NCBI GenBank assembly: GCA_903928685.1
Contig: CAIYRS010000021.1
Coordinates: 1 to 64,000 of the forward strand
Direction of reading: 5' to 3'
Source of the DNA: an uncultured Methylococcaceae bacterium
GTDB lineage: Bacteria; Pseudomonadota; Gammaproteobacteria; Methylococcales; Methylomonadaceae
DNA: 64,000 bases
Positions 18,033 to 19,388 of this stretch are shown in pieces (positions within the stretch are counted from its first letter, which is position 1; each line of letters opens with the position of its first letter). Under the pieces are notes generated by a model. That model made no database searches. It saw nothing but the letters and a program-made list of their open reading frames with translations, and had not been told where the DNA came from. The translations under genes and the position numbers were made by a program.

Positions 18033-18085
18033 GTGAGCAAAGACTTAAACCATTCATGCTTCGACAAGCTTGTATGGTAAAGCTT

Positions 18086-18262
18086 AAGAGAATCGGGGAA
18101 ACTTTGGGTGTCGGGATGGAGGGACGTCGACAAGTATCTGCTTAGACAGCCCTCGCTGAGAGTTCATCCCATCGCGTCTTCCAGGGTCGATGAAGAATCT
18201 AGCGGTCAGACCGCCGATTTGTGCACAAGCTTACCCGGCAGAAGCACCACCCCGACTCTCTT
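18086..18262 (+). ncRNA. Putative IS110 bridge RNA (about 177 nt)
   Basis: Closing stem AAGAGAATCGGGG (18086-18098)/CCCCGACTCTCTT (18250-18262), 12 of 13 pairs. Target loop guides TCGACAAG (18127-18134) and GCTGAG (18155-18160). Donor loop guides AGAATCT (18194-18200) and ACAAG (18225-18229). Internal hairpin GCGGTCAGACCGC (18202-18214). Confidence 0.85.
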
Positions 18263-18284
18263 ATTTTCAATAGCCGGAGGATTT

Positions 18285-19238
18285 ATGAAAAGCGAAATGT
18301 TGATTGGAATCGATGTGGCGAAGGATGAGTTGGTGATTGATTCAGGGCAAGGGCTTGTCACCATTGCCAATACCCCGTCAGCCATTGATGCCTGGCTGGC
18401 GACCTTGCCAGAGGAAAGTTATCTGGGGCTGGAGGCGACGGGGACCTATCATCAACAGGTCGCCAACCGTGCGGTATCGATGGGCAAGGTTGTCTATGTG
18501 CTCAACCCACGTGACATGCGCCATTATGCGCTCGGCTTAGGGCGGCGCGGCAAGACGGACCGGGTGGACGCCCAAATGATCCGGCGCTTCATCACGGCCG
18601 AACGGTGCCATTTACGCCCCTACCAACCAGCCACGGAAGTGCATCACCAATTGGCTTTGCTGCAACGGCGGCGTGCGACCGTCGTCAAACACCGCCAAGC
18701 CCTGCACAAAGCCTTGCGGGGCATGAACGAACTGGCCGCGCCTATCCGTGCGGCCTTGCTGTCCTTGGACGCCTTGCTGACGAACATTGACAAGCAAATG
18801 AATGGCTTGTTAACGCGGCAACCGATGCTTAAAGCCGAAGCCCGGCGACTTGAAAGCATACCGGGCATTGGCCGGCAAACCTCAACACAGCTTGCCGTCT
18901 TGTTTGATCGTGTACCGTTAAGCGGCAGCGATGCCGCCGTGGCATTTGTGGGGCTTGATCCTAGGGCCAGTGATTCAGGGCAAAAGCGGGGGCGGCGGCG
19001 TGTGTCCAAGCGTGGGCCGGCCGAGTTGCGGCGGTTGCTGTACAACTGTGCCCAGGCGGGGGTCAAAACCGCCGTGTGGAAACCTTATTACCAAGCCTTA
19101 CTCGCCAGAGAATTCTCTGCGACCCAGGCACTGGTCATCCTGGCCAGGAAATTATTACGCATCGCCTTCTCGCTTTGGCGTCAAGCCGATGCCAGATTCG
19201 ATGCACAGAAAATAGGCTGCATTAAAGTTGCAGCTTGA
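18285..19238 (+). CDS. IS110-family transposase (DEDD RuvC-like plus Tnp20 domain)
   Basis: MLIGIDVAKDELVID ... LGLEATGTYH ... GRRGKTDRVDAQMIRRF ... LESIPGIGRQTSTQLAV ... FVGLDPRASDSGQKRGRRRVSKRGPAELRRLLYNCA; SD ggagg upstream of the ATG at 18285. Confidence 0.95.
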   Translation: MKSEMLIGIDVAKDELVIDSGQGLVTIANTPSAIDAWLATLPEESYLGLEATGTYHQQVANRAVSMGKVVYVLNPRDMRHYALGLGRRGKTDRVDAQMIRRFITAERCHLRPYQPATEVHHQLALLQRRRATVVKHRQALHKALRGMNELAAPIRAALLSLDALLTNIDKQMNGLLTRQPMLKAEARRLESIPGIGRQTSTQLAVLFDRVPLSGSDAAVAFVGLDPRASDSGQKRGRRRVSKRGPAELRRLLYNCAQAGVKTAVWKPYYQALLAREFSATQALVILARKLLRIAFSLWRQADARFDAQKIGCIKVAA

Positions 19239-19388
19239 CTAAAACCATAGAATCTCAGCACGAACGGTTTAAGCCTTTGGTTCATATTATTTTTTCCTTA
19301 ACTTAATGGCATTGACGCCGGAGCATGGGAACTATAAATACCCACCCACTCATGTTCGTGTTTTTTCGTGCTTTTCGTGGACAATCAT

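What the first reader, a model, noticed from the sequence alone, without database searches (positions are those of the whole stretch)
18069..18284. Decodable IS110 bridge RNA: all four guide segments match the element's actual target and donor
The noncoding left end folds, by eye, into the bridge-RNA architecture. A closing stem AAGAGAATCGGGG (18086-18098)/CCCCGACTCTCTT (18250-18262) has 12 of 13 pairs and encloses two loops. Loop 1, with stem GGGATG (18113-18118)/CATCCC (18165-18170), carries TCGACAAG (18127-18134), identical to the 8 nt left of the insertion core (18061-18068). It also carries GCTGAG (18155-18160), the reverse complement of CTCAGC at the right junction (19254-19259). Loop 2, with CTTC/GAAG and GGGT/ACCC stem parts, carries AGAATCT (18194-18200), identical to the element's right end (19249-19255). 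It also carries ACAAG (18225-18229), the reverse complement of CTTGT at the left end (18069-18073), around a GCGGTCAGACCGC hairpin. Established knowledge: IS110 elements such as IS621 use a noncoding RNA with target and donor loops of this logic and a CT core. The family mechanism is known; this programme and REP-like target appear specific to this element and may be undescribed.
Basis: partly seen in the sequence, partly recalled or inferred. Interest (0 to 1): 0.92.

Follow-up and report, generated by a model that had tools for sequence, protein, structure and literature searches.

The report
IS110 bridge RNA with readable guides
A small mobile DNA element in a bacterium related to methane oxidisers carries an RNA whose four short guide stretches match the place it jumped into and its own two ends; this is a clear, well-supported new example of the recently discovered bridge-RNA (IS110) system rather than a new kind of thing.

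Summary
The element (18069-19253, flanked by CT cores) encodes an intact 317-aa DEDD/Ser recombinase whose solved relatives are IS621 and ISCro4, with an upstream RNA. A covariance model built without the window and its closest relatives still finds the RNA (18111-18237, 83.5 bits, E 1.3e-19). Across 55 distinct guide/target combinations from homologues, the left guide matches its own target at 6.6 of 8 positions, against 3.7 for swapped targets (0 of 20000 permutations as high); the right guide behaves likewise. Rare donor-end variants are mirrored in donor guides. The circular form would rebuild a TTGACT-17-TATGGT promoter just before the RNA. The rebuilt empty site is one copy of a dispersed repeat; its 14-bp target occurs 44 times in the genome (0 for the reversed control). 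Two corrections: the closing stem as drawn is not conserved family-wide in that register, and the target programme is not specific to this element (relatives in other genera and classes share it or nearly so). Mechanism and REP targeting are established for IS110 elements. Verdict: new member of a known kind, modest interest. Transcription and activity were not testable.

The parts
18069..19253 (+). IS110-group insertion sequence (left core CT counted in, repeated CT at 19254-19255 left out)
   Evidence: junctions match homologues and empty repeat copies
18061..18068 (+). left target (LT) TCGACAAG
   Evidence: same string in 44 intact target copies
18069..18070 (+). left core CT
19254..19255 (+). 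right core CT
19256..19259 (+). right target (RT) CAGC after the core
18085..18262 (+). predicted bridge RNA; 5' end inferred from the circle promoter, 3' end from the closing stem
   Evidence: 18111-18237 found by held-out covariance model; outer ends inferred
18086..18098 (+). 5' arm of closing stem (partner 18250-18262)
   Evidence: 12 of 13 pairs; register not conserved family-wide; end pairing in general supported
18250..18262 (+). 3' arm of closing stem
18113..18118 (+). target-binding-loop stem GGGATG (partner 18165-18170)
18165..18170 (+). target-binding-loop stem CATCCC
18127..18134 (+). left target guide (LTG) TCGACAAG
   Evidence: 8 of 8 with LT; covaries across homologues
18155..18160 (+). 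right target guide (RTG) GCTGAG, reverse complement of CTCAGC
18161..18161 (+). predicted handshake base A (opposite donor T before the core)
   Evidence: A in 63 of 82 loci examined; role by analogy with IS621
18184..18187 (+). donor-binding-loop stem GGGT (partner ACCC 18233-18236)
   Evidence: all four pairs show two-sided changes in relatives
18233..18236 (+). donor-binding-loop stem ACCC
18194..18200 (+). left donor guide (LDG) AGAATCT, identical to element right end 19249-19255
18202..18214 (+). donor-loop apical hairpin GCGGTCAGACCGC
18225..18229 (+). right donor guide (RDG) ACAAG, reverse complement of CTTGT at 18069-18073
18230..18230 (+). predicted handshake base C (opposite target G before the core)
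   Evidence: inference by analogy with IS621
18285..19238 (+). IS110 recombinase, 317 aa, DEDD (D10, E50, D92, D95) and serine S231
   Evidence: Pfam PF01548 + PF02371; IS621 alignment
19235..19240 (+). -35 TTGACT of the promoter rebuilt in the circle
18073..18078 (+). -10 TATGGT of the promoter rebuilt in the circle (17-nt spacer across the right-left junction)
   Evidence: no + strand promoter-like site in the integrated copy

Best explanation
This is an intact IS110-group insertion sequence that uses a bridge RNA. Excision would give a circle in which the joined ends rebuild a sigma-70 promoter that transcribes the left end (inferred). The RNA would bind the DEDD/Ser recombinase (inferred by homology). 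Its first loop would pair with both strands of a TCGACAAG-CT-CAGC target through LTG and RTG, its second loop with the circle junction AGAAT-CT-TGT through LDG and RDG, and the recombinase would exchange strands at the shared CT core. Shown here: the sequence matches, their covariation with target and donor across homologues, the covarying fold, the conserved catalytic residues, the precise insertion into one copy of a dispersed repeat, and the circle-only promoter sequence. Not shown: transcription, RNA binding, recombination.
For: Protein: PF01548 1e-18 and PF02371 2.9e-18; IS621 1.5e-32 and ISCro4 4.8e-31 in the PDB, with aligned D/E/D/D and S. RNA: a model built from 28 relatives, without the window and its close clade, finds 18111-18237 at 83.5 bits, E 1.3e-19, the only hit in the genome; helices covary. 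Guides: LTG 6.62/8 own against 3.73/8 swapped, 0 of 20000; with 27 targets that differ by at least 3 bases, 6.26 against 3.56; RTG 3.44/5 against 1.97/5, 0 of 20000. Natural re-programming between paralogues of one genome: L005 TTCCCTGG/TTCCCTGG and L009 TTCCTTGG/TTCCTTGG (same loci as L056 and L052). Donor: right end GAACCT with LDG GAACCT in L071 and L074; left end CTTAT with RDG ATAAG in L088. Empty copies of the repeat match the rebuilt site; 44 target copies in the genome, 0 for the reversed control.
Against: No expression or activity data. Only one copy in a 117-contig draft, so mobility in this strain is not shown. The minimum-energy fold does not leave the target guides free in a clean loop, and the drawn closing-stem register is not conserved. 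A few relatives mismatch their left target (L054 4/8, L100 3/8).
Confidence: 0.95

Rival explanations
1. The recombinase itself recognises the REP-like palindrome, and the RNA holds a similar string only because the element captured it; the RNA regulates transposase expression, as proposed for the ISPpu9 small RNAs Asr9 and Ssr9.
For: The target is a dispersed palindromic repeat; the ISPpu9 small RNAs were first described as regulators of tnp translation (PMC8450116).
Against: Guides covary with many unrelated targets, including single-base changes between paralogues. The seven-copy relative in G598 also sits at sites that keep the left-guide match but lack the repeat's right half (L040 CTCCAGCAG, L044 CTCAAAAAC). 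Donor guides covary too.
Confidence: 0.03
2. The left end is only a structured 5' untranslated region and the guide matches are chance in a repeat-rich window.
For: The window is rich in TCGACAAGCT-like strings (19 against 2.8 expected) and the fold z-score is only -1.8.
Against: Ordered four-way match at about 1e-6; held-out model E 1.3e-19; covariation.
Confidence: 0.01
3. A decaying, inactive IS110 copy that keeps a fossil bridge RNA (not exclusive with the best explanation, which concerns what the RNA is).
For: Single copy in the genome; substitutions at 18150 (C) and 18243 (A) weaken helices that close relatives keep.
Against: Open 317-aa frame with all catalytic residues, left guide fully matched, clean junctions.
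Confidence: 0.15

Closest known systems
IS621 of Escherichia coli (bridge RNA, IS110 group; PMC11208160, PMC11208158)
   Same: DEDD RuvC plus Tnp serine domains, RNA in the left end upstream of tnp, target loop then donor loop, LTG/RTG/LDG/RDG with CT core, promoter rebuilt in the circle, REP target
   Different: different guides and a different repeat as target; RNA 5' end predicted to pair with the 3' end rather than form a clear separate hairpin
ISPpu9 and ISPpu10 of Pseudomonas putida (IS110 family, REP-targeting; PMC8450116; ISPpu10 cited in PMC11187229 and drawn in PMC11208160)
   Same: IS110-family elements in REP sequences; ISPpu9 makes small RNAs of about 180 nt; the Pseudomonas relatives found here share the invariant ends CTTGTATGG and ACCATAGAATCT
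   Different: target is the Pseudomonas REP; these two named elements were not compared directly here
ISEc21 seekRNA (IS110 type; PMC11187229)
   Same: upstream noncoding region gives a transposase-bound RNA with the bottom-strand match before the top-strand match; natural redirection seen in a relative
   Different: different target; the paper reports a short 74-nt form, not examined here

Membership tests
IS110 group, bridge-RNA recombinase | recombinase with PF01548 (DEDD) and PF02371 (serine) domains, about 300-460 aa | tested here: met
   317 aa, both domains far over cut-off; D10, E50, D92, D95, S231 aligned to IS621
IS110 group, bridge-RNA recombinase | long left end upstream of tnp, short right end, only short sub-terminal inverted repeats | tested here: met
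   left end 216 bp, right end 15 bp between stop codon and core; short ATA/TAT pattern around the donor core
IS110 group, bridge-RNA recombinase | structured RNA in the left end with target and donor loops | tested here: met
   held-out covariance model hit and covarying helices
IS110 group, bridge-RNA recombinase | target guides match both strands of the insertion site and covary with it | tested here: met
IS110 group, bridge-RNA recombinase | donor guides match the element ends | tested here: met
   exact matches in the window; covariation seen in three relatives only, since donor ends hardly vary
IS110 group, bridge-RNA recombinase | promoter rebuilt across the circle junction | tested here: met
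   TTGACT-17-TATGGT; -35 conserved in the near clade, weak in several Pseudomonas relatives; sequence evidence only
IS110 group, bridge-RNA recombinase | RNA transcribed, bound by the recombinase, needed for recombination | not testable with these tools
   needs RNA-seq and an in vitro or E. coli assay
IS621-type RNA layout | separate 5' stem loop before the target loop | tested here: inconclusive
   the window sequence folds into an end-to-end closing stem instead; alternatives exist in relatives
IS1111 group | RNA downstream of tnp, long right end with long sub-terminal inverted repeats | tested here: not met
   RNA is upstream, right end is 15 bp; the model finds no other copy in the genome

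The most novel reading that the evidence does not exclude
In this branch of IS110 elements the two ends of the bridge RNA pair into a long basal stem that competes with the 5' hairpin, giving a two-state RNA that could tune when the recombinase is made or loaded; the window's element is a form in which the end-to-end stem dominates.
Probability: 0.15. Interest if true: 0.45.

Novelty: new member of a known kind. Interest (0 to 1): 0.3.

Why it matters
The mechanism is established, so the main value is practical: a compact IS110 recombinase with fully decoded guides, a relative with seven copies (81% identical) that shows natural mismatch tolerance, and a family with at least 27 distinct natural left-target sequences sharing nearly invariant donor ends. 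That is a ready natural data set on how target guides are re-programmed while the donor side stays fixed.

Tried and rejected
Rfam: no family reaches its cut-off; two sub-threshold AaHKsRNA41 hits lie on the REP-like palindrome and are at chance level. Single-strand folding alone was not informative. The first guide-extraction regular expressions misplaced several guides and were replaced by fixed anchors. Protein search of plasmids gave nothing and viral contigs only one distant relative. The first genome-contig scan with the single protein found nothing; the alignment scan gave 80 loci. A literature search for the repeat string found no paper. A second bridge RNA downstream of tnp in L122 turned out to be a neighbouring second copy of the element. 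The thyA region of same-genus genomes was located but not used for an orthologous empty site, since that DNA is only about 75% identical; dispersed empty repeat copies served instead.

Full report
Observation. The element lies between thyA and a LysR-type gene (gene names by the look of the translations). Every sequence, coordinate and complementarity in the finding is exact. The four guide matches in their stated order never appeared in 400000 Markov copies of the left end; the product of the single frequencies is about 1e-6. Random 8-mers of the window occur in the left end at a rate of 0.0019.

Protein. The frame 18285-19238 (317 aa) carries PF01548 and PF02371. Its only PDB relatives by sequence are the IS621 and ISCro4 transposases. 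The alignment keeps the DEDD residues and the serine that are catalytic in IS621 (PMC11208158).

Element limits. Across about 90 related loci the ends are nearly invariant, CTTGTATGG(T) at the left and ACCATAGAATCT at the right, while the flanks vary. Joining the flanks of the window element with one CT core gives CATTCATGCTTCGACAAGCTCAGCACGAACGG. That is the repeat unit seen in most of 30 empty copies in the same genome; one (L024) is nearly identical over the whole stretch. The 14-bp target occurs 44 times in the genome and 0 times for the reversed control. The target is thus part of a dispersed, REP-like palindromic repeat. Whether it is a REP in the strict sense (spread by a RAYT) is open: the genome gives one weak Y1_Tnp hit only.

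Guides. For 55 distinct combinations of left target and guide context, the guide matches its own target at 6.62 of 8 positions. Swapped targets give 3.73 (sd 0.18), and none of 20000 permutations reaches the observed value. With only targets that differ from each other by at least three bases (27), the figures are 6.26 and 3.56 (highest permutation 4.56). A shift of one base was allowed for own and swapped pairs alike. The right guide matches 3.44 of 5 non-core bases against 1.97, 0 of 20000. Relatedness of the elements is not fully controlled by this test, but the 27-target version removes most of it. Natural re-programming is visible at the single-base level: in genome G140 one copy has TTCCCTGG in both target and guide, a second copy TTCCTTGG in both. 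The seven copies in G598 share one guide and sit at TCGACAAG, TCGACAGG, TCGACAAA and TCGACGAG sites, two of them (L040, L044) without the repeat's right half. This argues for guide matching over recognition of the palindrome as such.

Donor side. Donor ends hardly vary, but where they do the guides follow: right end GAACCT with guide GAACCT in L071 and L074, left end CTTAT with guide ATAAG in L088. The base after the right donor guide is C in nearly all relatives, where most targets have G before the core, and G in the L087 group, whose target has C there. This fits the handshake pairing described for IS621, but it is one clade, so it is suggestive only.

RNA fold. On 32 homologues the consensus helices form standard pairs in 97.5% of cells, with 54 two-sided changes against 13.7 in shuffles and 1-6 in slid controls. 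A model built from 28 relatives without the window clade finds 18111-18237 with 83.5 bits, E 1.3e-19 in the window, and nothing else in the genome. It also finds the held-out relatives. A test of end-to-end pairing in any register shows own arms pairing better than swapped ones (mean -27.0 against -23.9 kcal/mol, 3 of 20000). So an end stem is likely in this branch, in different registers. IS621 has a separate 5' stem loop instead.

Expression. In the circle the junction reads TTGACT-17-TATGGT; the -35 matches at least 5 of 6 in most near relatives and is weak in several Pseudomonas relatives. The integrated copy has no promoter-like site on this strand. A start shortly after 18078 would fit an RNA of about 178 nt ending at 18262, close to the 177 nt of IS621. 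This is sequence evidence only.

Place among known systems. IS110-group bridge RNAs, their guides, their REP targets and natural redirection are described (PMC11208160, PMC11208158, PMC11187229, PMC1525189). The window element meets every defining feature that could be tested and is filed as a new member of a known kind. The host family is inferred to be that of Methylomonas and Methyloglobulus, because genomes with the same family code hold loci identical to those records.

Right: the guide decoding, the junctions, the core and the family. Overstated: the specificity and likely novelty of the programme, and the closing stem as a family feature. Missed: the promoter in the circle, the handshake bases, and the natural experiments in relatives that make the case.

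Noticed in passing
18108-19238: An in-frame GTG start gives a 376-aa reading that runs over the RNA; the ATG at 18285 with GGAGG just upstream is the likely start, so automatic annotation could mis-extend the recombinase.
   Followed up: partly
window, e.g. 885, 981, 18004, 37639, 58694, 63781, 63828: TCGACAAGCT-like strings are strongly over-represented (19 against 2.8 expected), part of a dispersed palindromic repeat with several composite forms.
   Followed up: partly
L002 (G000:C7:22220-22996) and L003 (G000:C80:15740-15988): Two more distant IS110-like proteins in the same genome, about 30% identical, with no match to the RNA model.
   Followed up: no
L054: Left flank does not match its guide (4 of 8) while the right flank is a repeat-type target; the flanks may come from two sites after recombination between copies.
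   Followed up: no
L122, 1782-2953 and from 3134: Two copies of the element sit next to each other in neighbouring repeats (Pseudomonas triticifolii).
   Followed up: yes
L070, L081, L123 left ends: The 5' hairpin arms and the end-to-end closing stem use the same letters (CAAGTCT...AGACTTG versus CTTGTCGGGG/CCCCGACAAG), so the two folds exclude each other.
   Followed up: partly
L087 group (Pseudomonas sp. KNUC1026): The base after the right donor guide is G where the target has C before the core, fitting handshake pairing; one clade only.
   Followed up: partly
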